Below, piece after piece: positions 9,850 to 25,715 of a stretch of DNA of 56,883 bases. The DNA is from a virus. The DNA lies in the IMG/VR virus record IMGVR_UViG_3300033156_001123, positions 1 through 56,883 of that record; one strand, given 5' to 3'. Every line of letters starts with the position of its first letter. The first letter of the stretch is position 1. The notes under the pieces were generated by a model. That model was not told the DNA's origin and did no database searches. It saw only the letters and a program-made list of their open reading frames with translations. The translations under genes and the position numbers were made by a program.

Positions 9850-9860
9850 TTTATCCTCCT

Positions 9861-10484: not shown

Positions 10485-11244
10485 TTGGCACACTCCCAAA
10501 AATTAAAGGCTTTCTGCTAACCCCTACTTCTTTACCTTTCCACCTCATGCTTGTAAAAGGTTCACCAAACCCAAAATTGGTCACTAAGTCTATTTTTGGT
10601 AAAGCTATCCAATATCCTTCTTTTTTCAAGTGCATCTTATATTCATAGTCTTCTCCAAATGCCCACGAGCCTTCAATAAAATCTCCATATTTTTCATATA
10701 TCTCTCTCCTAAAAGCCATTGCTGAGCCAACCTGATCTTCATGAATTTCAATAGTCAAACCATCTCTGGTAACTTCTTTAATCAACATTTTTCTCCAATC
10801 ACAAGGGTCATACCAATATTTGAACAATCCCAAAACTCCAATCTCTGGAAATGTTTCAAGAATTGCCACAGCTTTTTCAAGCCACAAGGGTTTAAATTCC
10901 AAATCAGAATCCAACTTGAACAAATATTTTCCGTGAGCACAGTGAAATCCTTTATTAATTGATGCTCCTACCCCTTGATTCTTGCCTGCATTTAGAATTA
11001 AACAGCTTAATTCTTTAGCTTTATATAACCTTAAAAGAAATTCCACATTCTCCTCTTCCATCGAACCATCATCTACTATTATGAGTTCGTACGGATATTT
11101 GGTATTTTTCTTCAATGAAGCAATTGTAGTATGAAGAAATTGTGGCCTGTTAAAAGAAAGAACTACCAAACTTGCTAATGGTTTACCTCCTACTGTAATG
11201 TATGGAATCCTATTTTCTTTATCATCTAAAAATTTCTTTTGCAT
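10477..11244 (-). CDS. Family 2 glycosyltransferase
   Basis: A 255-residue GT-A enzyme: ASLVVLSFNRPQFLHTTIASL at the N-terminus, IIVDDGS, then LFKLDSDLEFKP providing the metal-binding DXD (DSD), and WAFGEDYEYKMHLKKEGY as the acceptor-side ED motif. It has no membrane segment, so it should act in the cytoplasm. It touches its upstream methyltransferase gene (A shared in stop and start). It is related to but distinct from the two tandem GT pairs further upstream. Donor sugar unknown. Confidence 0.85.
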   Translation of the reverse strand: MQKKFLDDKENRIPYITVGGKPLASLVVLSFNRPQFLHTTIASLKKNTKYPYELIIVDDGSMEEENVEFLLRLYKAKELSCLILNAGKNQGVGASINKGFHCAHGKYLFKLDSDLEFKPLWLEKAVAILETFPEIGVLGLFKYWYDPCDWRKMLIKEVTRDGLTIEIHEDQVGSAMAFRREIYEKYGDFIEGSWAFGEDYEYKMHLKKEGYWIALPKIDLVTNFGFGEPFTSMRWKGKEVGVSRKPLIFGSVPNE

Positions 11245-11765
11245 TACTTAACTGCCATCAAAGTTGTAAACAAACCTTCGCCTTGAACAAAATTCTTTAA
11301 TACTTCAAATCTGGCTCTAACTCCGTAAGCTTCTCTGTCTCTGTTATCAGCTGAAGGCAGCCACCATGACCATAAATCTGGATGAATTAATCTTTTGTGG
11401 TCAGGATGTGCATATGCATATTTAGATGTCCACAGAGGATTAATCATTTCTAATATGCCTTTTCTTTTCAACACTCTCCAAATTTCTTCCATAACAAAAA
11501 TCAAATTGTTCACATGCTCCATAAAATGCGAAGCATAAATAAAATCTATAGTGCAATCTCCAAAAGGCAAACCATGTTTATCCACATCCCTAACAATATC
11601 AACTCCAGGACATTTATAATTATCAATTCCTATAAAACCAGGAGGAATTTGCCTTTTTCTATCTCCACAGCCAAGATCAACTTTTACGCAATTTGGATTC
11701 GTTAATGGTAAAGCTATTGAATCACTACTTGTTAATCTCAACTTAACTTGAATACTTTCAATCAT
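11244..11765 (-). CDS. SAM-dependent methyltransferase (class I)
   Basis: A 173-residue methyltransferase with the SAM loop VDLGCGDRKRQIPPGFIGID and the segment SHFMEHVNNLIFVMEEIWRV followed by LKRKG. The same order (LGCGDNK, GFVNID, HSLEHL, MSEIWRVLKPGG) occurs in the methyltransferase domain of the 938-residue fusion protein at 32877-35693, so the two are probably paralogues. It overlaps the epimerase gene upstream by four bases. A sugar or glycan substrate is inferred from the neighbours. Confidence 0.75.
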   Translation of the reverse strand: MIESIQVKLRLTSSDSIALPLTNPNCVKVDLGCGDRKRQIPPGFIGIDNYKCPGVDIVRDVDKHGLPFGDCTIDFIYASHFMEHVNNLIFVMEEIWRVLKRKGILEMINPLWTSKYAYAHPDHKRLIHPDLWSWWLPSADNRDREAYGVRARFEVLKNFVQGEGLFTTLMAVK

Positions 11766-12793
11766 AGTATGCTACAAACCCTTTTTCTATTTTTGTGCGC
11801 CCAATCCCAAATTATGTCTATTACTTGTTTTGGATTGAGTTTTGGCTGCCAATACTTCGAGACTTTCCTGATATCACTTACATATACCAAGTGGTCAGCT
11901 GGCCTCCAATTTTGATACACTACTCTATATGGCCGTTGGTCTAAATTAGATAGATATTCTAATACTTCAATCAGTGATACAGTATTATTAGGTCCACCAC
12001 CAACATTATACACTTGGCCTTTGTGTACATCTATATCTTCAATCTCTTTCAAAAACAAATCAGCCAAATCTCCAACATATAACACATCCCTAACTTGCTT
12101 ACCATCACCATAAATATTTATCACAGCATCAACCATTTTAGCATAAACAAACCAAGATACCCACCCTTGTTCTTCTTTACCAAGCTGCCTTTCCCCAGCT
12201 ATACAGCTCATCCTATTCACAACAGTAGGAACACCATAAGTATGATAATATTCTTGGCAATATCTATCTCCTATATATTTAGAACAACCATATGGGCTAT
12301 AAGCGGCTCTACCTCCAGAGTCAACTGGAAAACCTTCAGGGATACCTAAAATAAATTTTTTGTCTATCCATTTTCTCTTATTGTCAAAGATCTTAGATTG
12401 AATTTCATTTACTTCACAAGAATAAACTTTATTAGTGCTACAATAAATTACTGGCATTTTACCATTATTCTTGGCCAATTCAAGCACATTTAAAGTACCT
12501 AAAGCATTTACTTCAAAGTCATAAATGGGATCTTCAATTGAAGCTGGAACTCCTGGCTGTGCTGCTGTGTGAATAATGGCATCAACATTTTTAATTCTGG
12601 ACAGCTGGTCATAATTCCTTACATCTCCCTTTATAAAAACAAAATTCTGATTTTTGCTCAATTCCTCTAAGTTGCTTTCTGAGCCTTTTCTGCACAAATT
12701 ATCAAAAGCAACCACATTGTACCCTCTACTTAAAGCTCTCAATGCCACATTTGTACCAATAAAACCACAGCCACCAGTAATTAATATTAGCAT
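11762..12793 (-). CDS. NAD-dependent sugar epimerase, CDP-paratose 2-epimerase-like
   Basis: An extended SDR of 343 residues: nucleotide loop TGGCGFIGTN, CSTNKVY at the catalytic Ser/Thr strand, and YGCSKYIGDRY with the YxxxK pair. The stretch NRMSCIAGERQLGKEEQGWV closely follows the pattern of CDP-paratose/tyvelose 2-epimerases (RfbE), which invert C2 of a nucleotide sugar. The cassette shows no CDP-sugar enzyme, so the substrate may instead be the GDP- or dTDP-sugar made by the neighbours. The next gene begins directly upstream at 12794. Confidence 0.75.
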   Translation of the reverse strand: MLILITGGCGFIGTNVALRALSRGYNVVAFDNLCRKGSESNLEELSKNQNFVFIKGDVRNYDQLSRIKNVDAIIHTAAQPGVPASIEDPIYDFEVNALGTLNVLELAKNNGKMPVIYCSTNKVYSCEVNEIQSKIFDNKRKWIDKKFILGIPEGFPVDSGGRAAYSPYGCSKYIGDRYCQEYYHTYGVPTVVNRMSCIAGERQLGKEEQGWVSWFVYAKMVDAVINIYGDGKQVRDVLYVGDLADLFLKEIEDIDVHKGQVYNVGGGPNNTVSLIEVLEYLSNLDQRPYRVVYQNWRPADHLVYVSDIRKVSKYWQPKLNPKQVIDIIWDWAHKNRKRVCSIL

Positions 12794-13621
12794 CTATGCT
12801 CTCCTTTCATTCTTAACATATTCTCCAATACATTCTGGAATCACTTCCTCAATATTTCTTACTTTAAAGCCCGATTGTTCAAGTTTTTGAGTGGACAAAA
12901 TCAGATTAGTCCTATTAAGTCCCAATTCCTCAAAGTCAATAACTTTATATTCAAACTCTGGGTGTGCTTTTTTGTAATATTCCATTAATTGTGGGTATCT
13001 TAGCCCACCTTTATTAACAACATTATATACTCCTCTTGCATCAATTGAAATCAAATGTTCTACAGCTTTTATAAAGTCAGGGATATATGTAATAGAATTT
13101 GGAATATCTATAACTTTTTTATATTTGATTAGCTTAGTCAGAAGATTATGTGAGTGAACCTTTACGTCCAGAGGAATTCTAATCCTGACGATTAAAATTG
13201 GGTAACTTTCAGCTAAAACTGATAATGCCCTTTCTGCATAGATTTTGGATCTTGAATAAAAAAGCTTGAAATAATCTGGCGGTAAATTCTCTGTGATGAT
13301 CTCAGACCCATGATAATGATAAATACAACCACTGCTAATATGAATCATTTTAATTCCTTTCCTAATAGCAATTTCAGCTAAAATAATAGGAATTGCCACA
13401 TTAGCAAATATTGTTTTATCTTTATCTGTTTCACAATCATCAACATTATTAACTCCTGTATAACCTATACAATTGATTATAATTGATGGTGAATACTTTT
13501 GGATCTCATTCTCAGCATCCTCAAAAGTATAAATCTTACGATCTGATATTTCACATTGTAACCCCTCCAAAAGCCTACCGCCTATAAATCCCTTACCGAT
13601 TATTAGAATTTTTTGTTTCAT
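12794..13621 (-). CDS. RmlD-like SDR, nucleotide-sugar reductase/epimerase
   Basis: A 275-residue SDR with N-terminal ILIIGKGFIGGRLLEGL, INCIGYTG, ISSGCIYHY and YSRSKIYAE (YxxxK). It resembles RmlD and the reductase half of bifunctional 3,5-epimerase/4-reductase enzymes, which reduce 4-keto-6-deoxy sugars. With RmlA and RmlB in the same cassette, a dTDP-4-keto sugar is one plausible substrate; a 4-keto GDP-heptose is another. The first 29 bases overlap the GmhB gene, so the two are likely coupled in translation. Confidence 0.7.
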   Translation of the reverse strand: MKQKILIIGKGFIGGRLLEGLQCEISDRKIYTFEDAENEIQKYSPSIIINCIGYTGVNNVDDCETDKDKTIFANVAIPIILAEIAIRKGIKMIHISSGCIYHYHGSEIITENLPPDYFKLFYSRSKIYAERALSVLAESYPILIVRIRIPLDVKVHSHNLLTKLIKYKKVIDIPNSITYIPDFIKAVEHLISIDARGVYNVVNKGGLRYPQLMEYYKKAHPEFEYKVIDFEELGLNRTNLILSTQKLEQSGFKVRNIEEVIPECIGEYVKNERRA

Positions 13622-14108
13622 TTTCTATAACCTTTGATGCCTCCAATAAATTTGCAGCAATTGTTGGACTTAAAGGACTCTTAACCAAAATGCTCCTGCA
13701 GCCCAAAGTATCAGCAGCTACTAAATCAGACAGACTATCTCCTATTACATATGATTCCTTAACATCTATATTCCAATCTCTAATAGCTTTCACAAACATA
13801 CCCAATTTCGGCTTTCTGTCACTACTATAATCTGGACAAACATAAATTGCATCTATAGTTATTCCAAATTTTTCAAATTCTTTTTTCATGTGTTCATGAA
13901 TAGCATTTACATCTTGTTCTGTTGCTTTACCTAAATAAATACCAAATTGATTCGTGATAATAATTATCAAATATCCCAATCTTTTAAATCTCTTCAAAGC
14001 ACCAATGACTCCAGGAAGAATCTTAAAATCCTCAACTTTAGTAACATATTTTCCTGGCTCAACATGATTAATTACCCCATCTCTGTCTAAAAATACTGCT
14101 TTATTCAT
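13593..14108 (-). CDS. gmhB: D-glycero-D-manno-heptose 1,7-bisphosphate phosphatase-like
   Basis: A 171-residue HAD phosphatase: motif I FLDRDGVIN, motif II IIIITNQFGI, the basic motif RKPKLGM and motif IV GDSLSDLVAA. The HAD layout and neighbours (GmhA, HddA, HddC) give the 1,7-bisphosphate phosphatase of heptose activation. Standard GmhB has a Zn loop with three Cys and one His just before RKP; here that place reads CPDYSSDRKP, with only one Cys, so zinc is probably not bound. The start shares one base with the gmhA stop. Confidence 0.85.
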   Translation of the reverse strand: MNKAVFLDRDGVINHVEPGKYVTKVEDFKILPGVIGALKRFKRLGYLIIIITNQFGIYLGKATEQDVNAIHEHMKKEFEKFGITIDAIYVCPDYSSDRKPKLGMFVKAIRDWNIDVKESYVIGDSLSDLVAADTLGCRSILVKSPLSPTIAANLLEASKVIENETKNSNNR

Positions 14109-14644
14109 TACCTCCTACCCTTCAAATAACTTGAAATTGAGTGTGCTATCGCAAGATGTATATCCTCTACCATCTCATAGTTCTTTAGTCCAACTCCTAT
14201 ATATTTATCGCAACATTCAGCTACCTGTCCACTACCCGAAAAGCCTAACAAAGCAAATACAATCATCCCAATCCTTTTAGCAACTTTTGCTGCCTCAACT
14301 AAATTCTTCGAATTACCAGAAACTGAGATTATCATTAATATATCCTGGTCAGTACCAAACAATTTCAATTGCTCTGAGTAACTTTTTGAAAAATCTATAT
14401 CATTCGACAAAGCTGTCACCAAGCCCGAATTGTCAACCAGCGAGATAGCTCTAATACCACAATTCTTCACTAAGTCAGTAGCAAAATGGCTCGCAGTTTC
14501 AGCAGATCCACCATTCCCAACAATATATATTTTACCTTCACATATTTTTATATACTCAGCCATATAGCCAATATCATCTATATAATCAGCAATTGACTCC
14601 AAGAAATAAGCTGTCAAATGAGCAAAATAATCATCAATTTTCAT
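14108..14644 (-). CDS. gmhA: Sedoheptulose 7-phosphate isomerase
   Basis: A 178-residue SIS-domain protein with GNGGSAETASHFATDLVKN, ALSNDIDFSKSYSEQL and SVSGNSKNLVEAAKVAK, the defining segments of GmhA, plus the C-terminal EDIHLAIAHSI helix that carries active-site Glu and His. It turns sedoheptulose 7-phosphate into D-glycero-D-manno-heptose 7-phosphate, the first step of heptose activation. The start overlaps the SDR upstream by four bases. Length is normal for the family. Confidence 0.93.
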   Translation of the reverse strand: MKIDDYFAHLTAYFLESIADYIDDIGYMAEYIKICEGKIYIVGNGGSAETASHFATDLVKNCGIRAISLVDNSGLVTALSNDIDFSKSYSEQLKLFGTDQDILMIISVSGNSKNLVEAAKVAKRIGMIVFALLGFSGSGQVAECCDKYIGVGLKNYEMVEDIHLAIAHSISSYLKGRR

Positions 14645-15570
14645 TTTATTCCCAAAACCTCCTTCTTAATCCATTCAGCTGTCAGCCTAATTGCCTCCTC
14701 TGGTGGAACTTTTGGATTATAACCCAGTACCTTCCTTGCTTTTTCATTGGAGAATAGCTCTCTTTGTCCAAACTCACCAGGTCTATATGGTTTTTCAATA
14801 ATCGGCACTCTTTTTCCACAAGCTTTCATACACAATTCAGCTATATCTCTCACTTTTAATTCTTTACCATAACTGACCTGAAATTTTTCTCCGACCACTT
14901 TCTCCCTTGGTGCTTGAATAGCTAATTCCCAAGCATCTAAAACATCATCAACATAAGTAGTATCTCTTGTTTGGTCGCCTCCTTCCAGAATTATTGGTTT
15001 ATTTCTCAAAATATTATAAATCCATTTGAATACAAAAATTTCTCTCCTCATACCAGGACCACAAATATATCCATTACTCATTACTACAATTGGAACCTTA
15101 TAACTTCTATACCACGCCCAGCAAGCCAATTCCTGTGCACATTTACTCCAAGAATAAGGATTGTGTGGCATCAAAGGATGATCTTCATCTATAGGTAAAT
15201 ACAATGGCCTGCCCCATTCATTACCTGAACCAGCATATATCAATTTCTCAATTTTGACTTTTCTGGCTGCTTCCAATAATGCCACTGTGCCCATAGCATT
15301 TTCCCAAGCAGTCCAAACTGGAGAAGGAAAACCCATTGGCACATCCGCTTGTGCACAGAAGTGAACAACAATATCATGGCCTTCAATATCTTCAGGTTGA
15401 ATATCATGAACAGCTTTCCATAAATAATTTAGTTTTGGATTATCAATATCTAAACCTGAATGCAGAGGAGCCACAATATCCAGAGCTGTTACTTCATAAC
15501 CTTTTTTCAGCAGCCTTTTAGTCAACCCAGATCCACCAAAACCAGCTGCTCCAGTAATTAGTACTTTCAA
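14641..15570 (-). CDS. NAD-dependent sugar epimerase/dehydratase (extended SDR)
   Basis: A 309-residue extended SDR: TGAAGFGGSG at the N-terminus, AGSGNEWGRPLYLPIDED around the catalytic Ser, and NPYSWSKCAQE with YxxxK. The loop reads GFGG where most relatives have GFIG. It lies between hddA and gmhA, so the GDP-heptose made by this gene set is the most likely substrate, perhaps as a 4,6-dehydratase or 3/5-epimerase of GDP-heptose as in 6-deoxy-heptose pathways. I cannot choose between dehydratase and epimerase from the residues seen. Confidence 0.75.
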   Translation of the reverse strand: MKVLITGAAGFGGSGLTKRLLKKGYEVTALDIVAPLHSGLDIDNPKLNYLWKAVHDIQPEDIEGHDIVVHFCAQADVPMGFPSPVWTAWENAMGTVALLEAARKVKIEKLIYAGSGNEWGRPLYLPIDEDHPLMPHNPYSWSKCAQELACWAWYRSYKVPIVVMSNGYICGPGMRREIFVFKWIYNILRNKPIILEGGDQTRDTTYVDDVLDAWELAIQAPREKVVGEKFQVSYGKELKVRDIAELCMKACGKRVPIIEKPYRPGEFGQRELFSNEKARKVLGYNPKVPPEEAIRLTAEWIKKEVLGIK

Positions 15571-15581
15571 GGTATACCTCC

Positions 15582-16556
15582 TTAATTAACATAAATTATC
15601 CTTGAACCCTCGAAATCAAATCTGAAAGGCACTTCTATTAACGGCCAAAGTGATTCTCTAACTTTTTGACGATTATATTTCTCAACAAATAAAAGAAGAA
15701 AACCTCTACCTCCAGCTCCGCACAGCTTACCACCTAATGCACCTGCCATTTTCGCTGTTTCATAAATTGTATCAATATCTTCATTCGTGATTAATTTAGA
15801 TAATTTCTTCTTCAGCTTCCATTCTTCATCCAACAGTAAACCAAAATCTGTAAGTTCTTTACCTTCTTCCAAACAATCTTTCATTTCATATGCCAATTCT
15901 CTCATCTCTTTCAAGACCAAATAGTTCTCTTTAAAGTTATAAGTAGAAATTACATCAGAAGCTCTCTTCCGCTTACTTATACCAGTATAAATTAACATCA
16001 GACTTTGATTTAATTCATCTTTAATCTCAGGTTCACAAAGTATAGGCTTGATATTTACCGCATCATTAGATTCAAACTCTATAAGGTTCAAACCTCCATA
16101 TGCTGCAGCATATTGGTCTTGTTTGCCTATATGCTCTTTAAGAATATCTATCTCTATTGCACAGGCTAACTCTGCCAATTCTGTTCTTGACAAATATTTA
16201 CTTTTCAGTGCACACAGAGCATTTAACAAGCCAACAGTAAAACTTGAAGAAGACCCTAAACCTGTCGCTTGAGGAATATCTGCAATTGAGGCTATATCAA
16301 CACCACTCACATTGATTAATTTTAAACATTCTCGAATAATAGGGTGTTTAATTTGATTAACTTTTTCAGCTTCCTCTACTTCAGAGTAGCACGCCCTTAT
16401 TCCACCGTCAAATCTTCTATTTAGAAAAATATACATATAGCGATTGATAGTTGTAGAAATTACTGCTCCAGTTTCTAAACCATAAAAATCCTTAATATCA
16501 GTACCGCCACCAGCAAAGCTAATTCTAAATGGTGTTCTTGAGATTATCATTGGCAA
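15582..16556 (-). CDS. hddA: D-glycero-D-manno-heptose 7-phosphate kinase
   Basis: A 324-residue GHMP kinase. N-terminal SRTPFRISFAGGGTDIKDFY, the ATP-binding PQATGLGSSSSFTVGLLNAL and the C-terminal GALGGKLCGAGGRGFLLLF are the three GHMP motifs in the version seen in HddA/HldA-type heptose kinases. It adds phosphate to C1 of D-glycero-D-manno-heptose 7-phosphate. Flanked by the matching guanylyltransferase upstream and by gmhA and gmhB downstream. Confidence 0.9.
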   Translation of the reverse strand: MPMIISRTPFRISFAGGGTDIKDFYGLETGAVISTTINRYMYIFLNRRFDGGIRACYSEVEEAEKVNQIKHPIIRECLKLINVSGVDIASIADIPQATGLGSSSSFTVGLLNALCALKSKYLSRTELAELACAIEIDILKEHIGKQDQYAAAYGGLNLIEFESNDAVNIKPILCEPEIKDELNQSLMLIYTGISKRKRASDVISTYNFKENYLVLKEMRELAYEMKDCLEEGKELTDFGLLLDEEWKLKKKLSKLITNEDIDTIYETAKMAGALGGKLCGAGGRGFLLLFVEKYNRQKVRESLWPLIEVPFRFDFEGSRIIYVN

Positions 16557-16583
16557 ATCTCCTAAATTTTTAATAACACATTT

Positions 16584-17261
16584 TTAAATCCCAACCATTT
16601 CTTTTTTAAATTTCTGCAGTCCAGAAAAAGTTCCAATATCATAAAACTTATTCTTACTTATATATGTTTTTACTTGTCTTTCAGAAATTAACTTCGGTAA
16701 TACTTCCTTTTCAAATGAAATAAAATATTTATCAGGAAATAAATTGAATATACCTTTATTCATTACCGAAACTCCTGCATCAATATAAACTGGGTCAAAA
16801 CCTGATTTGCTATATTCAATTAAATCACCATGCTGACCAATTTTACAATTTGCTTTTTCAGCTTCGCACACAACCATCATCATTAACCTATTGGATCTTT
16901 TAAATAACTTATATAACTCCAAATAATCAATATCTAAATAAGTATCTCCATTAACTACAAAAAAATCTTCTCCCAATAGATTTTTAGCTAATTTCAGTGA
17001 ACCTCCAGTGCCTGCTGGAATAACTTCATGGCTATATTCAATATTAACACCAAAAGCAGCTCCATCTCCAAAATATTTTTTTATCTGCCCACCTAAATAG
17101 CCAGTACAAATAACTAAATTAGCGATCTTATTCTTTTTCAACAGCCTAATCACATATTCCAAAAATGGGTATATACCTATCCTAATCATGGGCTTTGGCT
17201 CCAAATATGTCAAAGGTCTTAATCTTGTACCTTGTCCACCCGCCAAAATAACTGCTTGCAT
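16584..17261 (-). CDS. hddC: D-glycero-D-manno-heptose 1-phosphate guanylyltransferase
   Basis: A 225-residue nucleotidyltransferase: ILAGGQGTRLRPLTYLEPKP (nucleotide-binding signature), AGTGGSLKLA, FFVVNGDTYLDID (metal-binding D) and a C-terminal FYDIGTFSGL. These match HddC-type GDP-heptose synthases more than RmlA, and the adjacent hddA, gmhA and gmhB complete that pathway. It makes GDP-D-glycero-D-manno-heptose from the 1-phosphate. GDP specificity is inferred from the gene neighbourhood. Confidence 0.85.
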   Translation of the reverse strand: MQAVILAGGQGTRLRPLTYLEPKPMIRIGIYPFLEYVIRLLKKNKIANLVICTGYLGGQIKKYFGDGAAFGVNIEYSHEVIPAGTGGSLKLAKNLLGEDFFVVNGDTYLDIDYLELYKLFKRSNRLMMMVVCEAEKANCKIGQHGDLIEYSKSGFDPVYIDAGVSVMNKGIFNLFPDKYFISFEKEVLPKLISERQVKTYISKNKFYDIGTFSGLQKFKKEMVGI

Positions 17262-18089
17262 TCATCGCTCCTTTAACACTCCCCAATCTTTCCCAACATT
17301 AACTTTCCATTCATTAGGTTTCCTTGATTGCAATCTTAAATAATTTTTCTTAACTAACTCTGGCTGCCAAGTATACGGAGGTGGAGGTTCATGATATAAA
17401 TGTATAGCAATCATTTTATTTGTTCTAACTTCTTTAATTCCATAATATCTCAGTCGAGTTAATAGATCAATATCATCATAGCCTCCAGCTCCTCCGTCCA
17501 GAAATTCCTCATCATAACCACCAATCGCCAATAAGTGCTCCTTAAATGTTACTGCTATGTGATGAGTACCTCCATTTGGGAAATAAGTAATTGTGTCTGG
17601 CGGTGAACAATAGCCTACATAATAATCATGCACATTTGGTAATTTAGTTATTAAAATAGGATTTAATAGTTGTTTTTCACTTAATTGTCTCAAAGCTATT
17701 TCATAAACATCATACAAGGGGTTCGCAATCAATATTTTGTCTTCATTTTCAGGTTCAGAAAAAAATTCTTTAGCAATCTTAACATCTGGTGTTGGGTGAA
17801 GGACCTCTGGTTCTGTTAGCATAATTAAATCTCCAGTAGCCTTCTTAATACCACAATTCATTCCATGAACACAAATAGTCCAACCTGGATTGTTATTATA
17901 ATAATATTTCAAATTTACTTTAGGATACTCTTTCATAAAATTCTCAATAATTCTACCAGTACCATCTACAGAGCCATCATCAATAAAAATAATCTCATCA
18001 GGTGGCACTTGTTGGTTTATTAAACTCAATAAACTCCACCTAATAAGACCACCTCTGTTATAAGAAGACGTTACAGCCGATAATTTCAT
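17262..18089 (-). CDS. Family 2 glycosyltransferase (pair A, member 2)
   Basis: About 275 residues from the ATG at 18087-18089, which overlaps the upstream stop as ATGA; an in-frame ATG 18 bases earlier is possible. GT-A motifs: TSSYNRGGLIRWSLLSLI, IIFIDDGSVDGTGRI, the DXD position reading MLTEPEVLHP, and DEEFLDGGAGGYDDIDLLTR at the acceptor side. Its tandem neighbour has the same YNNNPG and TEPEVLH segments, so they arose by duplication. The usual aspartates of the DXD are replaced by EPE. Confidence 0.85.
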   Translation of the reverse strand: MKLSAVTSSYNRGGLIRWSLLSLINQQVPPDEIIFIDDGSVDGTGRIIENFMKEYPKVNLKYYYNNNPGWTICVHGMNCGIKKATGDLIMLTEPEVLHPTPDVKIAKEFFSEPENEDKILIANPLYDVYEIALRQLSEKQLLNPILITKLPNVHDYYVGYCSPPDTITYFPNGGTHHIAVTFKEHLLAIGGYDEEFLDGGAGGYDDIDLLTRLRYYGIKEVRTNKMIAIHLYHEPPPPYTWQPELVKKNYLRLQSRKPNEWKVNVGKDWGVLKER

Positions 18090-18883
18090 GTCCTTATTAC
18101 TCCCCATTCTTTATCTTTATTTGCTATTATTGGCTTGTTAGGATCTTCGTGTAAGGTCTTATTGTAATTCCAGTTCTCAAGACATCCTGTATAACCATGA
18201 GCTAAATGAACCACTTTTATACTTTCATCAGAAATACATCTGACACCAAATCTGCTCAATCTTGATTGCAAATCAATATCATCCCACCCCCAATGAGGTA
18301 AAAACCTTTCATCAAAACCACCAATTGCCATCAGCCACTCTTTTCTCACTGATGCACAATAGCAAGCTGAAACTCTTCTTGATACAGCAATATCTTCATA
18401 CTGAGGGATATAACCTTCTCTCCATTCAACCACTTCTTTTATTTTTGTAATTAATTCGGGATTTCTAAAATGTTCAAGACTTAAAATCCTAATAATCCCA
18501 GCAAACACAAAATAAACCGTCCCTGCTGACACAAATAATTTAAGTTCTCTTTTGTGCCAATCCACATGCTGTTTAATAGTATTGCCTATATGTAACACTT
18601 CTGGCTCTGTAAAAATAATCAGCTCTCCTTTAGCTTGTTTAATCCCGATGTTTTTTGCCAAACAGCAATTTGTATATCCTGGATTATTGTTATAAATATA
18701 TCTAATATTATGATTAGGATATTCACTCTGAAATGTTTTTATTAAGTCAGCCGTATAATCCTGACTACCATCATCAACTATAATTACCTCATCAGGTTTA
18801 TAATCTTGATTCAACAATGTATATAAACCCCTATTTAGATGTCCTGCTCTATTATAAGTTGTTATTATTACTGATACTTTCAC
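18086..18883 (-). CDS. Family 2 glycosyltransferase (pair A, member 1)
   Basis: A 265-residue GT-A enzyme starting at GTG (18881-18883) inside the stop of a 35-residue coiled-coil ORF. Motifs: VIITTYNRAGHLNRGLYTLL, VIIVDDGSQDYTADLI, IIFTEPEVLH in place of the DXD, and GGFDERFLPHWGWDDIDLQS. Shares YIYNNNPGYTNC and TEPEVLH with the next gene. A cytoplasmic protein with no membrane segment. Donor and acceptor unknown. Confidence 0.85.
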   Translation of the reverse strand: MKVSVIITTYNRAGHLNRGLYTLLNQDYKPDEVIIVDDGSQDYTADLIKTFQSEYPNHNIRYIYNNNPGYTNCCLAKNIGIKQAKGELIIFTEPEVLHIGNTIKQHVDWHKRELKLFVSAGTVYFVFAGIIRILSLEHFRNPELITKIKEVVEWREGYIPQYEDIAVSRRVSACYCASVRKEWLMAIGGFDERFLPHWGWDDIDLQSRLSRFGVRCISDESIKVVHLAHGYTGCLENWNYNKTLHEDPNKPIIANKDKEWGVIRT

Positions 18884-18987
18884 CTTTTCTTTTCCTGATG
18901 TTTCTGAAATTTAACAAATTCTTCTGCAAGAGTTGCCAGTTTATCTAATTTTTCACTAATAGTGGCAAGTTTAGAATTTATATTCAA
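18880..18987 (-). CDS. Small coiled-coil protein, 35 residues
   Basis: TTG start at 18985-18987 overlapping the stop of the upstream gene, stop at 18880-18882 overlapping the GTG of the glycosyltransferase below. The peptide (NSKLATISEKLDKLATLAEE, then a Lys-rich end) has heptad spacing of Ile/Leu and is predicted helical. Overlap at both ends argues for a real coupled gene. Function unknown; it may be an accessory of the adjacent glycosyltransferases. Confidence 0.45.
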   Translation of the reverse strand: MNINSKLATISEKLDKLATLAEEFVKFQKHQEKKR

Positions 18988-19172
18988 CGATCTATCTTCC
19001 TTTGGTTTTGGCCAAACAAATAATACGGATTCCAAAACATAATCCTCTTTTTTTCTACAATCTTCTTTAACTCTTCTACTGCTGTATCAAAGTCCTTGAT
19101 ATAATATTCTTCTGATTTATTCCATCCTTTAATAACTACCTTTATCATCTTTGCTGGGTCAATTAATGCCAT
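18984..19172 (-). CDS. Small hypothetical protein, 62 residues
   Basis: ATG start after AAAGGAGGC, beginning MALIDPAKMIKVVIKGWNKS. It has an acidic/basic helical middle (DFDTAVEELKKIVEKKR) and an aromatic C-terminus (MFWNPYYLFGQNQRK). No family recognised. It sits between two glycosyltransferase pairs. The aromatic-rich segment might bind a partner or a glycan, but nothing shows this. Confidence 0.55.
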   Translation of the reverse strand: MALIDPAKMIKVVIKGWNKSEEYYIKDFDTAVEELKKIVEKKRIMFWNPYYLFGQNQRKIDR

Positions 19173-19988
19173 TTAATGCCTCCTTTTATGTTTGTTATCT
19201 ATATATTTTATATTTTTCTTCAAACTTTCTATGTTTGCTTCTTGATTTCTTTCATGATAAATATGCCAGCCCATCACTTCATCTGTAAAGATGAACTTAT
19301 ACCCAAATTCATCAATCATTTGACCTAAATCACAATCCTCTCCTCCATGCCCAACGATGTTTTCATCAAAACCTCCAACCTCTAAAAAAATCTTTTTAGG
19401 CATTAAAACATTACCACCAAATAAAGCGCCACCAGACCCTGAAACTGGCCTCCTTGATGAATTGTCTCTATACCTTTTATCTCTTTCAAATAATGACTGT
19501 CTTATATCAGCACCAATTAATTCACCCTTAGGAATATATTGAACATTTACCCTATTGCTTACCACCAAATCAAACCTAAATAATACATCCTCCAGTGTCA
19601 GCTTCATTGGCAATAGGAAATCGTACCTGCCACAAATTACACAATCAGGGAATTGGCTATGCAGACTGTGATAAGTGGCCAGCCAATCATTCTTGACAAT
19701 AATATCAGAATCTATAAATATTATTGTATCAGAATTTTCATTCATCAGCTCAACTCCCCTGTTGCGAGCTTGACCTGCTCTAAACCCTCTATCTGGCTGC
19801 CAAAAATACTTAATATTAAAGTCAGCAAACTTCCTGACAACTGACAAAATGTCTTTCTGAGAACCGTCATCACAAACAACCACTTCAAACTTATCAAAAT
19901 CAAACTCCTGTTTAAACAAGCAAGTCAAACAGCACTCCAATTCGAATGGTCTATTATACACCGGTATCACAATAGAATATTCAATCAT
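19173..19988 (-). CDS. Family 2 glycosyltransferase (pair B, member 2)
   Basis: About 271 residues from the ATG at 19986-19988; TTG/GTG codons up to 15 bases earlier are possible. Motifs: YSIVIPVYNRPFELECCLTC, VVCDDGS, IIFIDSDIIVKND (DXD) and VGGFDENIVGHGGEDCDLG, the galactosyltransferase C-terminal-type acceptor motif. The gene above has the same order with IFVDSDVILNPD and AGGFDTNIRGHGGEDCCLG. Both end in a lysine-rich KKNIxYIxNK segment, so they are tandem duplicates. Confidence 0.88.
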   Translation of the reverse strand: MIEYSIVIPVYNRPFELECCLTCLFKQEFDFDKFEVVVCDDGSQKDILSVVRKFADFNIKYFWQPDRGFRAGQARNRGVELMNENSDTIIFIDSDIIVKNDWLATYHSLHSQFPDCVICGRYDFLLPMKLTLEDVLFRFDLVVSNRVNVQYIPKGELIGADIRQSLFERDKRYRDNSSRRPVSGSGGALFGGNVLMPKKIFLEVGGFDENIVGHGGEDCDLGQMIDEFGYKFIFTDEVMGWHIYHERNQEANIESLKKNIKYIDNKHKRRH

Positions 19989-19992
19989 AGCC

Positions 19993-20904
19993 TTAGACAC
20001 CAAGTTCTTTTCTTTTCTCTAAAGGAAGAAACATCCCATCATCACTGTAAATCATATTCTTCTCTGGCTCTGCAATAATTCCATACTTAATGTGTAAATC
20101 CCGATATTTATTTTCTATGTACCTAATATTCTTTTTAACATCCTGTTCATTTTGAGCTTGATTTCTCGGATGCCAGATATGCCAGCCAATTACTTCCTCT
20201 GAAAATAACGCTTTTGCTCCTCTCCTAAACAGTTCCCATCCTAAACAACAGTCTTCCCCTCCATGTCCTCTTATATTCGTATCAAAACCACCTGCTTCCA
20301 AAAAAAGCTTTTTAGGGATTAGCAAATTACCTCCAAACATTCCTAAAGCAAAAGGTTTACCTGTAACTGGCGATAAACTACTCGGCTCTTTCCAAAATTT
20401 TGTCCTTTCATCCTTCCACCTTGGATCTACTCCTGGTAGAGGACCAGCAGAAATAGGAGCTACTTGTGGAAATTGATTACTTACTACTTTATCAAATTGA
20501 TTTGCCACCAATTCTTCAGTTATATTCATAGGCATCAGCCAATCATATCTGCCACAAATTATTGTCTCAGGATATAAACTATGTAACTTATCATAGGCTT
20601 TCAAAGCATCAGGATTAAGAATTACATCTGAATCCACGAATATCAGAGCTTCTCCAATAGCAATTTTACTTGCCAGATTTTTTGCTGGACCTGGATTACC
20701 TGTCTTGCCTATTCTCCATAGATACTTTATATTCATTATAGCTGAATACTTCTGAGCTATCTTCACAGCAGGGTCTGTACCTTCATCGCTAATAATGACT
20801 TCCCAAAATTCTGTAGGGAAGGTTTGTTTTGCTAAAGCCATCAAACAACATGATAAATTCTGGTGTCTATTATAGGTAGGAATTATAATAGAAAATTTAA
20901 TCAC
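19993..20904 (-). CDS. Family 2 glycosyltransferase (pair B, member 1)
   Basis: A 303-residue GT-A enzyme with SIIIPTYNRHQNLSCCLMAL, ALIFVDSDVILNPD and GGFDTNIRGHGGEDCCLG. It shares more than motif-level likeness with its downstream neighbour, including CGRYDWLMPM versus CGRYDFLLPM and GWHIWHPRNQA versus GWHIYHERNQE, and has an extra C-terminal tail. It overlaps the homing-endonuclease-like gene by eight bases. Confidence 0.88.
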   Translation of the reverse strand: MIKFSIIIPTYNRHQNLSCCLMALAKQTFPTEFWEVIISDEGTDPAVKIAQKYSAIMNIKYLWRIGKTGNPGPAKNLASKIAIGEALIFVDSDVILNPDALKAYDKLHSLYPETIICGRYDWLMPMNITEELVANQFDKVVSNQFPQVAPISAGPLPGVDPRWKDERTKFWKEPSSLSPVTGKPFALGMFGGNLLIPKKLFLEAGGFDTNIRGHGGEDCCLGWELFRRGAKALFSEEVIGWHIWHPRNQAQNEQDVKKNIRYIENKYRDLHIKYGIIAEPEKNMIYSDDGMFLPLEKRKELGV

Positions 20905-21790
20905 AATTTCCTCCTAAAAATTGTAAAGTTTTTAAAACTATCTTATCTGTTATTTGAGTCTCATCAAAATATGCTACCTTCCAACCATATTTGCCAAATA
21001 TTTTAGAACGCTTCTCCTTCCATTCTTCTATACTCCTACCACCTCTGCTCTTATAATATCTGGCAAAAACTTCCACTGCAATTTTCTTGCCATTAGTATT
21101 AATAAAGTCAGGATTACAATTTTCAAGAATAAATGAGCCATCACCCACATATTTATAAGGTAAGCCATATTTATCAACAATTCTCTGAAACTTAATTTCC
21201 AAACTGGTGGGAATCCTTCGTCTCATAACATTCTTAATTGCTTGTGCAGACCGTTTTTTGCCTCTTAAAGCATGAGACCTTTTTAGTTTAGTCCACTTTG
21301 ATTGCTTAACTCCTAAATGAGATTCTCTGAGATCTCTCGGAGTAAAACCAAACTGTTTAAATAACCACTTGAAATTAGTTGGGGAAAAGCCAAGAATTTT
21401 TGAACACTGATACAATGATTTTCTTTGATAAAAATACCAATACCAGAATAGCCATTTAGGATGCATATGATATTTCTGCTTTAAAATATGGAATTTTCTC
21501 AATCTTCTCTTTAATAAGTTTGGTGGATTGTTTCTTAGGGCTTCTTTAATTTTTTCTATAGTTATAGGTGAGAGCTTTTTACCTTTATTCCAGGAGATCT
21601 TTCCTTTCATAGCATTGCTTATTTTTTTTCTCCGCTCTTCAGTAAATACCTTCCCTTTTAATGCATTGCTTATCTTCTTGCGAGTCTCTTCAGTATGATG
21701 CCTACCTTTAATCCAAGGAATTTTTCCTTTATTAGCAATGCCTATTTTCCGTTTATGCTCTTCAGATAATCGTTTCTTCATTTTCTCCAT
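20897..21790 (-). CDS. Homing endonuclease-like protein: NUMOD3 repeats plus Vsr-like nuclease
   Basis: The 297-residue protein starts with at least three NUMOD3-type units (RKIGIANKGKIPWIKGR, TRKKISNALKGKVFTEERR, RKKISNAMKGKISWNKGK). The C-terminal half has TSLEIKFQRIVDKYGLPY, CNPDFINTNGKKIAVEVF and KYGWKVAYFDE, the order of Glu, Asp and Glu found in Vsr-like/PD-(D/E)XK homing nucleases. It shares one base with the upstream fusion gene. Together with the HNH gene at 9151 it brackets the central part of the glycan cassette. Confidence 0.8.
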   Translation of the reverse strand: MEKMKKRLSEEHKRKIGIANKGKIPWIKGRHHTEETRKKISNALKGKVFTEERRKKISNAMKGKISWNKGKKLSPITIEKIKEALRNNPPNLLKRRLRKFHILKQKYHMHPKWLFWYWYFYQRKSLYQCSKILGFSPTNFKWLFKQFGFTPRDLRESHLGVKQSKWTKLKRSHALRGKKRSAQAIKNVMRRRIPTSLEIKFQRIVDKYGLPYKYVGDGSFILENCNPDFINTNGKKIAVEVFARYYKSRGGRSIEEWKEKRSKIFGKYGWKVAYFDETQITDKIVLKTLQFLGGNCD

Positions 21791-23454
21791 TAATCTGCAA
21801 TATAACAGGTGCTATAAGGGCCGTCTATATGACAACTCGGCCTAAAACACTTATCAGTTAAACAATTGACGCCCAGCTGACACCATTCAGCTGTACGACC
21901 CCATACATTAGGAAGATCTTTCAAGTGGCAAAGAGGCTTCAATTCGTGGCAGATAGAAACACTAAGATCTGTATCAACTACCAAACTCTTTCTAAAAGCC
22001 TCACATTTTTTATGTTCACCTGTTCTCAAGAATTGAGTAATCTTTTTTGCAAATCTGTCATGAGCAAATAGTCTATTCGGTGTTTGATTAATAATCCTAT
22101 CTAAAAGACCTATCTTCTCAGGAGTCCATTTTTCTTTTACTTTCCCTACAAAATAACTTCCAGAAACTCCTGTTCTAATACAGAAAGTTATTCCCAATTT
22201 CTCTATGAATTCAATTAAATAAGGTAACTCCTCAACTGTGTCAGGATAAACAGTAATACTTATCCCTCCTTTATGTGGCCACAGGGAATTTAAAAATTTT
22301 GCAGTTTCAATTGCTTGATTAAAAACTCCAGAGACACCTCTAAGTCTATCATGGACTTCCTCTCTGCCATCTATACTAACCCTAATAACAAAATTACCTT
22401 TTAGATTATTTGCAACAGTCTGCCAAATTTTTTTCTGGAGAGGAAAATTTGTGCCATTAGTAACAACTCCTATCTCCTGACCTGGCCACCGATTATTGCA
22501 AATCGCAAGTAATTCAACAAGATTAGGGTGTAGAGTAGGCTCCCCTCCAAAAATACATACATTTGTAATATTAGAGAAAAAGTTATGAGCAATAAATTTC
22601 TGTAACTCAAACACATCCAAATCATTTGAAGATCGCTTTTTCCAGATATTACAATGAACACATCTTAAATTACATCTCCAAGTGGCAGCAATAGCTATCC
22701 AAAAAGGAGCAATAACATCTAATTTCCTGTGATGAAGCCATTTTTCTCTGAATAAAGACTTATTTTCAGTCTCATGTAAAAATCTACCCTCAGAGCCAAA
22801 ACGATGATGCAATATTACAGCATCTGCACAATAGTAAATCCCATAGCCATATTCTTTTGCCCTTAAACAAAAATCTACATCTTCCCATCCATTAATAAAC
22901 TCTTCACAAAAACCACCCAACCTGTCAAATACTTCTTTCTCTACCAATATACAAGCTGCAGTTACAGCCTCAGCTTCTCTGCTTTTATTACAACTATAAT
23001 CATCTGCTGGCCTACCTTGGCCATATTCATAAGGATACCCAGAAGCTGCCATAAACCTAATTCCTGCATGCTGTATAAATCTACCATCAATTGTCAACAA
23101 TTTTGCACCCACTATTGGAAATTTGGGGTAATTATCCTCAGCAATTTTCAGCATATACTCTAAAAAGCCTTTTTGTGGCTCTGTGTCATTATTTAGAAAC
23201 AATATATACTCAGCTTCTAAACTCTTAGCACCTCTATTACAGCTTTTAGCAAAACCAACATTTGCTTCATTCTTAATATAGTTAATCTCTGGATATTTTT
23301 CTGCCCATCTATCAGTACCATCTATTGAACCATCATCTACCAAAGTTAATTTCCAATTTATTTTATCAGATATATTCTCCCTTAAACACTTCCACAAAGG
23401 ATCTAAAAACTTCTTGCCATTATAAGTTGGCACAACGATATTTACTTTAACCAT
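21790..23454 (-). CDS. Glycosyltransferase 2 - radical SAM fusion protein
   Basis: A 554-residue protein with two enzymes. Residues 1-245 are a family 2 glycosyltransferase (NIVVPTYNGKKFLDPLWKCL, LTLVDDGSIDGT, FLNNDTEP as the metal site, INGWEDVDFCLRAKEYGY). Residues 250-554 are a radical SAM domain: the [4Fe-4S] motif CNLRCVHC at 261-268, GGEPT at 303-307, and IRVSIDGREEVHDRLRG. The C-terminus holds about seven Cys (CEAFRK, CHELKPLC, CQLGVNCLTDKC, CHIDGPYSTC), as in SPASM/twitch-type auxiliary cluster regions. Fusion suggests that the sugar or acceptor is both transferred and radical-modified. Start and end codons are clean, so the fusion is not an assembly artefact of one base. Confidence 0.9.
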   Translation of the reverse strand: MVKVNIVVPTYNGKKFLDPLWKCLRENISDKINWKLTLVDDGSIDGTDRWAEKYPEINYIKNEANVGFAKSCNRGAKSLEAEYILFLNNDTEPQKGFLEYMLKIAEDNYPKFPIVGAKLLTIDGRFIQHAGIRFMAASGYPYEYGQGRPADDYSCNKSREAEAVTAACILVEKEVFDRLGGFCEEFINGWEDVDFCLRAKEYGYGIYYCADAVILHHRFGSEGRFLHETENKSLFREKWLHHRKLDVIAPFWIAIAATWRCNLRCVHCNIWKKRSSNDLDVFELQKFIAHNFFSNITNVCIFGGEPTLHPNLVELLAICNNRWPGQEIGVVTNGTNFPLQKKIWQTVANNLKGNFVIRVSIDGREEVHDRLRGVSGVFNQAIETAKFLNSLWPHKGGISITVYPDTVEELPYLIEFIEKLGITFCIRTGVSGSYFVGKVKEKWTPEKIGLLDRIINQTPNRLFAHDRFAKKITQFLRTGEHKKCEAFRKSLVVDTDLSVSICHELKPLCHLKDLPNVWGRTAEWCQLGVNCLTDKCFRPSCHIDGPYSTCYIAD

Positions 23455-23467
23455 TTAAACTCGTCCT

Positions 23468-24007
23468 TTAAGAATCACTGTTTATAAACTTTTTAGTCTT
23501 ATCTTTTAAAACTTCCCAATATCCATCAATCATGCTTCTAAACTTCCTTACTACATCCTCTTCTGTTTCTCCCCCCAGAGGTGTAATACTACCTAATTCA
23601 ATATCAGCAACAACTAATTCAGAACCTGCATCAGGATTGCCACTATTATCAAAACCTTTATAGATCTGAATTCCATGTTTATTACCAACCTTAGAAGACA
23701 GAATCACTCTCCTTACAAGTTCTGGCAATTCTCTTTGCTGAGAATAAGCCCGACAATAAACTCCAATAGTAAAATTAAACCTCGCCAGCCTTGACTCTGT
23801 GCCTTCATAGTCAGGCTGAACATTCACATCATGTTCTTCTAAATAAGGATGAATAAGAATGAAAGGTAATGTTAAATCTGAAAGATTTAAATCAGGATGA
23901 CTAATATAAACTCTATCATCAAAATCATTTTCCAAATCTGCTGAGCTTCTTAAGAAGTATACCAAACTATTGTAAAAAGCTTCCCCGAGATTATTGACTA
24001 AAGACAT
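23468..24007 (-). CDS. Tail terminator / tail completion-like protein
   Basis: A 179-residue soluble protein with LGEAFYNSLVYFL, TLPFILIHPYLEEHDV and RFNFTIGVYCRAYSQQRELP, an alpha/beta pattern with a central beta segment seen in tail terminator (gpU/gp17-like) proteins. In gene order it follows the gp10-like and connector genes and precedes the tail tube, once the glycan genes are ignored, which is the expected place. It is the only structural-type gene within the cassette. Function by synteny and general pattern. Confidence 0.55.
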   Translation of the reverse strand: MSLVNNLGEAFYNSLVYFLRSSADLENDFDDRVYISHPDLNLSDLTLPFILIHPYLEEHDVNVQPDYEGTESRLARFNFTIGVYCRAYSQQRELPELVRRVILSSKVGNKHGIQIYKGFDNSGNPDAGSELVVADIELGSITPLGGETEEDVVRKFRSMIDGYWEVLKDKTKKFINSDS

Positions 24008-24027: not shown

Positions 24028-24744
24028 CTATTGTTCAATCTTATTTCTTTCATAAAAATACTGACTACTCTTAAAAAGAGAGGTAAAGGTCCCCGCATCG
24101 CTCCAGAATCCATCAAGTATTCTATATGTCAAACGATGATGAACGAGGTAATATCGATTAGTATCAGTAATTTCTAATTCTCCTCTATTTGAATATTCTT
24201 GGCTTCTAATTACATCAAAAACTTCACAATCATATAAATAAAAACCTGTTATTGCTAAGTCACTGATAAATTTCTTAGGTTTCTCAATAATCCTCATTAC
24301 TTTGCTATCTCTAATTTCAGCTACCCCAAATCTCTGGGGATCGCTAACTTTCTTCAGAAAAATCTTAGCCCCTCCAGTAAAATCAAGGATATCAGATTTG
24401 AAATCCTCTTCAAAAATGTTATCACCCAAAATCACTGCAACATTATCATCCTGAACAAAATCCTCAGCTAACAATAATGCTTCAGCAATTCCTCCTGCTT
24501 GGTCTTGGACTTTGTAAGTAAACTCTACTCCAAAGTCTTTTCCACTTCCCAAAGTCTGAATAACTGCTCCCATATGTTCCCTGCCAGTGACAATCAGAAT
24601 TTCTTTAATCCCTGAGTTAATTAAAGTTTTCAGAGGATAGAATATCATCGGTTTATTGAACACTGGTAGAAGATGTTTATTCGTCACTTTAGTACAAGGA
24701 TAAAGCCTCGTTCCCTTACCGCCCGCAAGTAATACTCCTTTCAT
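24028..24744 (-). CDS. rmlA: Glucose-1-phosphate thymidylyltransferase
   Basis: A 238-residue nucleotidyltransferase: VLLAGGKGTRLYPCTKVTNK, the substrate loop QDQAGGIAEALLLAEDF, and VILGDNIFEEDF with the metal-binding Asp. It lacks the C-terminal extension of classical RmlA and matches the short form of the family. It makes dTDP-glucose for the adjacent RmlB. The start overlaps the rmlB stop as ATGA, so the two are translated as a pair. Confidence 0.92.
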   Translation of the reverse strand: MKGVLLAGGKGTRLYPCTKVTNKHLLPVFNKPMIFYPLKTLINSGIKEILIVTGREHMGAVIQTLGSGKDFGVEFTYKVQDQAGGIAEALLLAEDFVQDDNVAVILGDNIFEEDFKSDILDFTGGAKIFLKKVSDPQRFGVAEIRDSKVMRIIEKPKKFISDLAITGFYLYDCEVFDVIRSQEYSNRGELEITDTNRYYLVHHRLTYRILDGFWSDAGTFTSLFKSSQYFYERNKIEQ

Positions 24745-25715
24745 TTATCATCCTCTTTAAGTTTTAATTTCTTCCACCACCACTCATTATTAATATACCA
24801 ATTAATGGTTTTATTCAAATTTGTTTCTAAATTATCTTTTATTTCAAAAACTAATTCAGTAATTTTTTTACAATCAACTGCATATCTCCTATCGTGCCCA
24901 GGTCTATCAGGAACAAATTCTATAAAGTATTCATAGTCAAGCGCCATATTCTCAATTATAAACTTGATTAATTCATAGTTAGTCACATCATCATATAAAG
25001 AGCCTATATTATATATCTCTCCAAATTTCCCTTTGTGAAGAAGAAGGTCTATAGCTCTACAATTATCCTCTACAAATATCCAGTTTCGTATTTGGTCTCC
25101 TTTTCCATAGATAGGCACTTTTTTATTTTCAAGTAAATTTGTTATTGCAAGAGGGATTAGTTTTTCAGGATACTGATAAGGACCAAAGTTATTAGTACTC
25201 CTGCTGATAATGTATTTAAGTCCGTAAGTTCTTCCGTAAGCTTGTACTAACAAATCTGCTCCTGCTTTACTTGCTGAATAAGGAGAAGAAGGCTTCAAAA
25301 GAGAATCTTCATCTGCAAATCCATCAAGCACTTCTCCATATACTTCATCTGTGCTAATTTGAAAAAATTTACAGTCATATCGAACCGCATAATCAAGAAG
25401 TCTCTGCACTCCTAAATAATTGCTTTTTATAAAAGGCAAGGAGTCTCTTATACTTCTATCAACATGGCTCTCAGCAGCAAAGTTGACTATCCAATCAGGA
25501 GGATCAAAAGGGAAATTCTGGATATCACAAATATCCATTTTAACAAAAATATAATTAGGATTATTTTCAATATCCTTCAAATTATCAGGATTGCCTGAGT
25601 AGGTGAGTTTATCTAAATTGTAAACTTTATAAGTAGGATAGCTTCTAAGAATATAATGGATGAAATTAGAACCAATGAACCCACATCCTCCAGTAATTAA
25701 TAGTCTTACACTCAA
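24741..25715 (-). CDS. rmlB: dTDP-glucose 4,6-dehydratase
   Basis: A 324-residue extended SDR with TGGCGFIGSNFIHYIL, ISTDEVYGEV, the catalytic YSASKAGADLLV and SNNFGPYQYPEKLIPL, all diagnostic of RmlB. It makes dTDP-4-keto-6-deoxyglucose. TTG start, preceded by GGAGGTAG. No rmlC was seen in the window, so the product must be used by other enzymes (the RmlD-like or epimerase genes here) or by host enzymes. Confidence 0.93.
   Translation of the reverse strand: MSVRLLITGGCGFIGSNFIHYILRSYPTYKVYNLDKLTYSGNPDNLKDIENNPNYIFVKMDICDIQNFPFDPPDWIVNFAAESHVDRSIRDSLPFIKSNYLGVQRLLDYAVRYDCKFFQISTDEVYGEVLDGFADEDSLLKPSSPYSASKAGADLLVQAYGRTYGLKYIISRSTNNFGPYQYPEKLIPLAITNLLENKKVPIYGKGDQIRNWIFVEDNCRAIDLLLHKGKFGEIYNIGSLYDDVTNYELIKFIIENMALDYEYFIEFVPDRPGHDRRYAVDCKKITELVFEIKDNLETNLNKTINWYINNEWWWKKLKLKEDDK

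What the first reader, a model, noticed from the sequence alone, without database searches (positions are those of the whole stretch)
21790..23454. Single-chain glycosyltransferase 2 - radical SAM enzyme
Seen: a GT2 domain (NNDTEP) is followed without break by CNLRCVHC, GGEPT and a Cys-rich C-terminus with about seven more Cys. Known: SPASM/twitch-type radical SAM enzymes modify peptides or sugars using auxiliary clusters. Inference: coupling transfer to radical chemistry could give an epimerised, dehydrogenated or cross-linked sugar or glycopeptide. I know of no characterised phage enzyme with this layout.
Basis: partly seen in the sequence, partly recalled or inferred. Interest (0 to 1): 0.8.

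Follow-up and report, generated by a model that had tools for sequence, protein, structure and literature searches.

The report
Phage sugar-transferase fused to radical-SAM enzyme
A sediment phage family encodes one protein that joins a sugar-attaching enzyme to a radical-chemistry enzyme, inside a large sugar-making gene block placed among its particle-building genes, so it probably builds and chemically edits an unusual sugar coat.

Summary
Window 21790-23454 (-) is one unbroken 554-aa ORF with an intact GT2 half (residues 1-245), an intact radical-SAM core (CxxxCxxC 261-268, GGEP) and a C-terminal twitch-like Cys region. The same 554-555 aa layout occurs in two other IMG/VR phage records (74% and 59% identical). 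All three carry it in a syntenic ~17-kb glycan module lying between neck and tail genes of the late operon.

The predicted structure is a confident two-domain protein. Its radical-SAM half matches BlsE (acts on a sugar) and SkfB (acts on a peptide). Cys 484, 502, 536 and 541 fit one auxiliary cluster: twitch-like, not full SPASM. Chemistry and substrate remain inferred.

The layout is rare but not unique: Omnitrophota chromosomes carry other glycosyltransferase-radical-SAM fusions, one an independent GT2-radical-SAM fusion in a polysaccharide locus. Unexpectedly, the window's radical-SAM half looks like a foreign allele: identity drops sharply at codon 264 and the two halves give conflicting trees. 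It lies beside a homing endonuclease that the close relative lacks.

Verdict: a new variant of known enzyme kinds, most likely glycan-editing; no characterised member was found.

The parts
21790..23454 (-). GT2-radical-SAM fusion gene, 554 aa
   Evidence: single ORF; Pfam; same length in two relatives
22720..23454 (-). GT2 half, residues 1-245; DDG 40-42, NND 88-90, ED 191-192
   Evidence: PF00535 80 bits; GT-A fold, Z up to 23.9
22165..22719 (-). radical-SAM core, about residues 246-430; GGEP 303-306
   Evidence: PF04055 57 bits; invariant motifs
22651..22674 (-). CxxxCxxC, residues 261-268, ligands of the SAM-binding cluster
   Evidence: 19/19 conserved
21793..22164 (-). C-terminal twitch-like region, about residues 431-554; C484, C502, C536, C541 are the candidate auxiliary-cluster ligands
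   Evidence: conserved 19/19, 19/19, 19/19, 17/19; 484 and 502 align with the C-terminal Cys of SkfB
20897..21790 (-). NUMOD3 homing-endonuclease-like gene between the fusion and the next GT2; absent at this place in both relatives
   Evidence: PF07460 69.7 bits; no match in G002; border sequences
24741..25715 (-). RmlB-like sugar-nucleotide 4,6-dehydratase
   Evidence: PF16363 215 bits; conserved in both relatives
24028..24744 (-). RmlA-like sugar-nucleotidyl transferase
   Evidence: PF00483 184 bits; conserved in both relatives
23468..24007 (-). 179-aa protein, no family match; by position perhaps a tail-completion protein
   Evidence: no Pfam or PHROG match; conserved in both relatives
17262..20904 (-). 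four further GT2 genes (19993-20904, 19173-20003, 18086-18883, 17262-18107) and a 62-aa ORF
   Evidence: PF00535 for all four GTs
13593..17261 (-). GDP-heptose-like route: HddC-like transferase, HddA-like kinase, a dehydratase/epimerase, GmhA-like isomerase, GmhB-like phosphatase
   Evidence: all below equivalog cut-offs, so the exact sugar is inferred
8009..13621 (-). rest of the module: RmlD-like reductase, second dehydratase/epimerase, two methyltransferases, one GT2, one GT1-like gene, one HNH homing endonuclease (9151-9849)
   Evidence: synteny

Best explanation
The gene encodes a two-domain glycan-modifying enzyme of a phage late-operon glycan module. The GT2 half transfers a sugar (dTDP- or GDP-activated, made by the neighbouring gene products) to an acceptor. 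The tethered radical-SAM/twitch half acts on that sugar, before or after transfer, by 5'-deoxyadenosyl-radical hydrogen abstraction (dehydrogenation, epimerisation or decarboxylation). The likeliest target is a glycan on the phage particle. Shown: the fusion, intact motifs of both halves, conservation in three phages, a syntenic module among structural genes, and the predicted folds. Inferred: catalysis, reaction type, order of steps, substrate, and the virion as target.
For: Both halves keep their catalytic motifs in three phages under purifying selection. The gene sits in a module of sugar-nucleotide genes, GTs and methyltransferases that is conserved and syntenic down to mostly 40-75% identity and lies on one strand between major capsid/neck genes and tail chaperone/tape-measure genes with near-zero gaps. 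The radical-SAM half aligns over 285 residues with BlsE, which decarboxylates a sugar acid (Z 23.6; PMC3715490). GTs are repeatedly fused to radical-SAM domains in Omnitrophota, and an independent GT2-radical-SAM fusion lies in a locus of polysaccharide-type genes. Radical-SAM genes also stand beside GT and rhamnose genes on a Brachyspira plasmid (PMC4267127).
Against: SkfB, a peptide maturase, is the best sequence match of the radical-SAM half and scores nearly as high as BlsE by fold (22.1 against 23.6). No named equivalog matches above cut-off. No activity data exist. The inter-domain geometry of the model is only moderately confident (pTM 0.69). A glycan on the particle has not been seen.
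Confidence: 0.45

Rival explanations
1. Protein-directed chemistry: the radical-SAM half modifies an amino-acid side chain of a virion protein (thioether, epimerisation or oxidation, as in SkfB, SuiB or anSME) at or near the residue that the GT2 half glycosylates.
For: Best sequence matches are peptide or protein maturases: SkfB 4e-31, CteB-like 5wgg 4e-26, anSME 2e-19. The GT half's highest fold match is a polypeptide GalNAc-transferase (Z 23.9), though many GT-A enzymes are tied with it.
Against: No precursor-peptide-like ORF was recognised beside the gene. BlsE, which acts on a sugar, scores slightly higher by fold. The surrounding genes and the cellular fusions are glycan genes.
Confidence: 0.2
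2. Host-directed: the module alters host surface polysaccharide during infection (superinfection exclusion or receptor change), with the same two-step enzyme.
For: This is how GTs and radical-SAM cassettes of pelagimyophages are interpreted (PMC7029224); O-antigen conversion GtrB-like PHROGs match weakly.
Against: The module is embedded in the late structural operon, and no flippase, polymerase or GtrA-like gene was recognised in the module genes that were scanned.
Confidence: 0.2
3. DNA-directed: the GTs, including the fusion, glycosylate hypermodified phage DNA.
For: Phage GTs can modify DNA (reference cited in PMC12619734).
Against: Only ordinary DNA methylases, no base-hydroxymethylating genes, were seen among the window genes scanned; the module makes several different sugars and lies among structural genes. 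The window is a fragment, so absence is weak evidence.
Confidence: 0.05
4. The radical-SAM half is catalytically dead and only scaffolds the glycosyltransferase.
For: It is the faster-evolving half (56-64% identity against 64-86%).
Against: All cluster and SAM motifs are invariant in three phages, dN/dS is about 0.19, and the fold is complete.
Confidence: 0.05

Closest known systems
BlsE, cytosylglucuronate decarboxylase (PDB 7vob; PMC3715490)
   Same: Radical-SAM fold aligned over residues 248-554 (Z 23.6, rmsd 3.1, 285 aligned); probably two iron-sulphur clusters; acts on a sugar.
   Different: Stand-alone enzyme of antibiotic biosynthesis, 16% identical over the aligned residues, no GT domain.
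SkfB, sporulation killing factor maturase (PDB 6efn)
   Same: Best sequence match of the radical-SAM half (E 4e-31 for the 19-row profile); the C484 and C502 region aligns with its C-terminal Cys.
   Different: Peptide substrate with its own N-terminal peptide-recognition part; no GT domain; equivalog cut-off not reached here.
Omnitrophota GT2-radical-SAM protein L037 (668 aa) and GT-radical-SAM-SPASM proteins (L030-L032, L034, L035)
   Same: Glycosyltransferase and radical-SAM domains in one chain; L037 has the direct GT2-radical-SAM order, 26% identical over 316 residues.
   Different: Chromosomal; the L037 GT half groups with cellular GT2s (100/100), so it was fused independently; the larger ones carry extra GT and SPASM domains.
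Mycofactocin pair MftC (radical SAM) and MftF (GT2)
   Same: Each half matches one partner family (MftF 69 bits, MftC 50 bits).
   Different: Separate proteins with a peptide substrate; both scores lie far below cut-off (280 and 265).
Phage virion glycosylation (mycobacteriophages; cited in PMC12619734 and PMC12363180)
   Same: Phage-borne glycosyltransferases that act on capsid and tail-tube proteins.
   Different: No radical-SAM fusion is reported there; the target is not shown for this phage.
Pelagimyophage GT and radical-SAM cassettes (PMC7029224)
   Same: Phage regions that hold both GT genes and radical-SAM genes.
   Different: No fusion of the two is described in the passages read; interpreted there as host-surface modification.

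Membership tests
Glycosyltransferase family 2 (GT-A fold) | Pfam Glycos_transf_2 above the gathering score | tested here: met
   80 bits against 23.3
Glycosyltransferase family 2 (GT-A fold) | GT-A fold and DDG / DxD-like / ED motifs | tested here: met
   fold match Z 22.9-23.9; D40-D41-G42, N88-N89-D90 and E191-D192 identical in three phages
Glycosyltransferase family 2 (GT-A fold) | Transfer of a sugar from a nucleotide donor | not testable with these tools
   needs a biochemical assay
Radical-SAM superfamily | CxxxCxxC and GGEP motifs, Pfam above the gathering score | tested here: met
   57 bits against 29.5; the three Cys and GGE 19/19
Radical-SAM superfamily | TIM-barrel radical-SAM fold | tested here: met
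   aligned with BlsE, SkfB, SuiB, Z 21-24
Radical-SAM superfamily | Reductive SAM cleavage | not testable with these tools
   needs anaerobic protein
SPASM domain (PF13186) | Match to the SPASM model (two auxiliary clusters) | tested here: not met
   no SPASM match up to E 0.01, while Omnitrophota fusions do match it
Twitch-type radical-SAM enzymes | C-terminal Cys set for one auxiliary cluster after the core | tested here: met
   C484, C502, C536 19/19 and C541 17/19; BtrN matched in this region only. Cluster binding itself not testable here
Twitch-type radical-SAM enzymes | NCBIfam twitch subfamily model NF033640 above cut-off | tested here: not met
   43.5 bits against 170; the model is matched only in the core
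Named radical-SAM equivalogs (TIGR03961, HxsC, NirJ, MftC and others) | Score above the curated NCBIfam cut-off | tested here: not met
   best is 72-73 bits against 306
Phage virion-glycosylation systems | Glycan demonstrated on capsid or tail protein | not testable with these tools
   only the genomic setting supports it

The most novel reading that the evidence does not exclude
A phage encodes a self-contained transfer-and-edit enzyme that attaches a sugar to its own particle and rewrites it by radical chemistry into a sugar the host does not make. The editing half is a replaceable module, exchanged between phages by recombination beside a homing endonuclease, so that particle glycan chemistry is diversified much as tail fibres are.
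Probability: 0.2. Interest if true: 0.75.

Novelty: new variant of a known kind. Interest (0 to 1): 0.5.

Why it matters
Radical-SAM enzymes known to act on sugars are few (own knowledge), and no characterised glycosyltransferase fused to one was found in what could be searched. A single polypeptide conserved in phages from different metagenomes gives a tractable test of whether transfer and radical editing are coupled, and of whether phages make chemically unusual particle glycans. The half-gene exchange beside a homing endonuclease is a clear case of domain-level allele replacement in a phage gene.

Tried and rejected
Acidiphilium plasmid hit spanning the hinge: rejected, because a stop codon follows the GT2 part and an IS element lies behind it. 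Viral GT2 relatives L041-L056: none has CxxxCxxC in the same frame, so none is a fusion. Five scans of viral contigs with the fusion or its halves gave only the same two relatives as fusions; a scan with the neighbouring GT2 gave the same two phages. The genome-collection scan gave the same Guaymas contig and two GT2-only loci. Hinge profile: one direct fusion among 384 Omnitrophota genomes besides the phage contig itself (both are rows of the profile), and none among 395 genomes of the phylum of G386. The capsid-protein scan found further related records, but the two longer ones end before the position of the module. A RiPP reading was given little weight, for want of a precursor-like ORF near the gene. 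An artefactual fusion by frameshift was rejected by three independent records. Paper searches found no GT2-radical-SAM fusion described; they cover open PMC papers only. The structure search list is dominated by GT rows, so a radical-SAM family that is not listed is not excluded. A search for promoters in the region gave no more than chance.

Full report
Observation. The ORF at 21790-23454 (-) reads 554 aa without a break. Pfam finds Glycos_transf_2 at residues 6-116 and Radical_SAM at 260-417, both above the curated cut-offs. The DDG, NND and ED motifs of GT2 and the CxxxCxxC, GGEP, TNG and SIDG..HD..RG motifs of radical-SAM enzymes are all intact in the sequence. The C-terminus holds eight Cys after residue 480, five of them shared by three phages.

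Relatives. Two other IMG/VR records carry the same layout. One is IMGVR_UViG_3300014911_000533, which has the same length and the same match position as QNCD01000002.1, a contig titled 'Candidatus Omnitrophota bacterium isolate B70_G16 B70_Guay16'; its copy is 74% identical. The other is IMGVR_UViG_3300017991_004311, 98.9 kb, with a 59% identical copy. No fusion was found in 50,697 phage records or in the plasmid set (the one plasmid candidate failed). In 384 Omnitrophota genomes one direct GT2-radical-SAM fusion was found apart from the phage contig. Several very long ORFs there join GT2, GT1, radical-SAM and SPASM domains, or a GT28-like domain with radical-SAM and SPASM. The direct chromosomal fusion (L037, 668 aa) lies in a locus of polysaccharide-type genes, as read from ORF sequences. 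Its GT half groups with cellular GT2s (100/100), whereas the phage GT half groups with viral GT2s (93/89), so the fusion probably arose at least twice.

Setting. Comparison of the window genes with the two relatives shows that the module, from the RmlB/RmlA-like genes to the GT1-like gene, is syntenic in all three phages, at 86-99% identity in one (the fusion itself 74%) and mostly 40-75% in the other. It is flanked by capsid and neck genes on one side and by tail chaperone and tape measure on the other, all on one strand, with gaps mostly between -29 and +53 bases and two of 100. Family matches suggest a dTDP-deoxysugar route and a GDP-heptose-like route; none of the sugar enzymes reaches an equivalog cut-off, so the exact sugars are inferred. 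The close relative overlaps window 204-38367 only, so the window is a fragment of a larger genome.

Structure. AlphaFold2 with a 36-row alignment gave mean pLDDT 87.8 and pTM 0.69. The GT half matches GT-A enzymes (Z up to 23.9), and the other half matches BlsE (Z 23.6, residues 248-554), SkfB (22.1) and SuiB (21.2). The arrangement of the two domains is less certain than the domains themselves. In 19 radical-SAM halves C261, C265, C268, C484, C502 and C536 are invariant and C541 is 17/19; C425 and C525 occur only in the three phages, and C319 in these and two cellular proteins. One auxiliary cluster is the simplest reading. No SPASM match was found for the phage protein.

Half-gene exchange. 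Between the window and L005 the flanking DNA is 93-94% identical; the fusion gene is 87% identical up to codon 264 and 66% after it. The breakpoint statistic (chi-square 100) exceeds every one of 5,000 permutations (maximum 22); rate differences between domains could also give a significant value, so the trees matter more. The GT half joins the window with L005 (92/90), whereas the radical-SAM half joins L005 with the distant L029 and leaves the window outside (98/86; 97/93 after long branches were left out). The second tree is rooted through a long branch, which tempers it. Identity returns to 93.8% just past the NUMOD3 gene at 20897-21790, which the relatives lack at this place. The simplest reading is that the window lineage received the radical-SAM half together with the endonuclease (co-conversion); this is inferred, and a separate exchange is not excluded. 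Among homologous genes of this phage pair, a tail-protein gene at 763-2400 (56%) is more diverged.

Interpretation. Placement, neighbours and the recurrent GT-radical-SAM fusions favour a glycan substrate. Sequence similarity to peptide maturases keeps a protein substrate open. Particle glycan is preferred over host glycan because of the late structural operon and because no flippase- or polymerase-like gene was recognised in the module. These are inferences. BlsE's sugar chemistry and its probable two clusters are from PMC3715490; virion glycosylation is cited in PMC12619734 and PMC12363180.

Novelty. Both halves belong to known kinds, their combination in one phage chain was not found described, and the product is unknown: a new variant of a known kind.

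Noticed in passing
window 20897-22665: The radical-SAM half of the window copy appears to be a foreign allele (breakpoint at codon 264, conflicting trees) adjoining a NUMOD3 endonuclease gene absent from the relatives.
   Followed up: yes
L005 7273-8013; L029 6554-7300: A methyltransferase gene stands just upstream of the fusion in both relatives; it is missing from the window, and in L005 its start appears frameshifted.
   Followed up: partly
window 32877-35693: A 938-aa ORF matches both a class I methyltransferase domain and an ATP-dependent DNA ligase domain, an odd combination, beside head genes.
   Followed up: no
window 9151-9849: A second NUMOD3-HNH endonuclease gene; G388 has a 56% identical one at a matching place (L096 12347-12778), and the close relative G002 has none.
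   Followed up: partly
window 763-2400: A tail-protein gene with an ILEI domain is only 56% identical to its counterpart in the close relative while neighbours are mostly above 86%.
   Followed up: no
L030 1-5622; L031 145-4677; L032 4605-10100; L034 1470-7967: Omnitrophota ORFs of 1,500-2,170 aa; the three scanned (L030-L032) join GT2, GT1, radical-SAM and SPASM domains, and L034 shows GT2 and radical-SAM matches.
   Followed up: partly
L045 7712-11041; L055 6423-12305: Viral ORFs of 1,110 and 1,961 aa each hold three GT2-like stretches.
   Followed up: no
L006 (QNCD01000002.1): A GenBank contig filed as an Omnitrophota MAG scaffold has the same length as the phage record and matches at the same coordinates: a mis-binned phage contig, or a weak hint of the host.
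   Followed up: no
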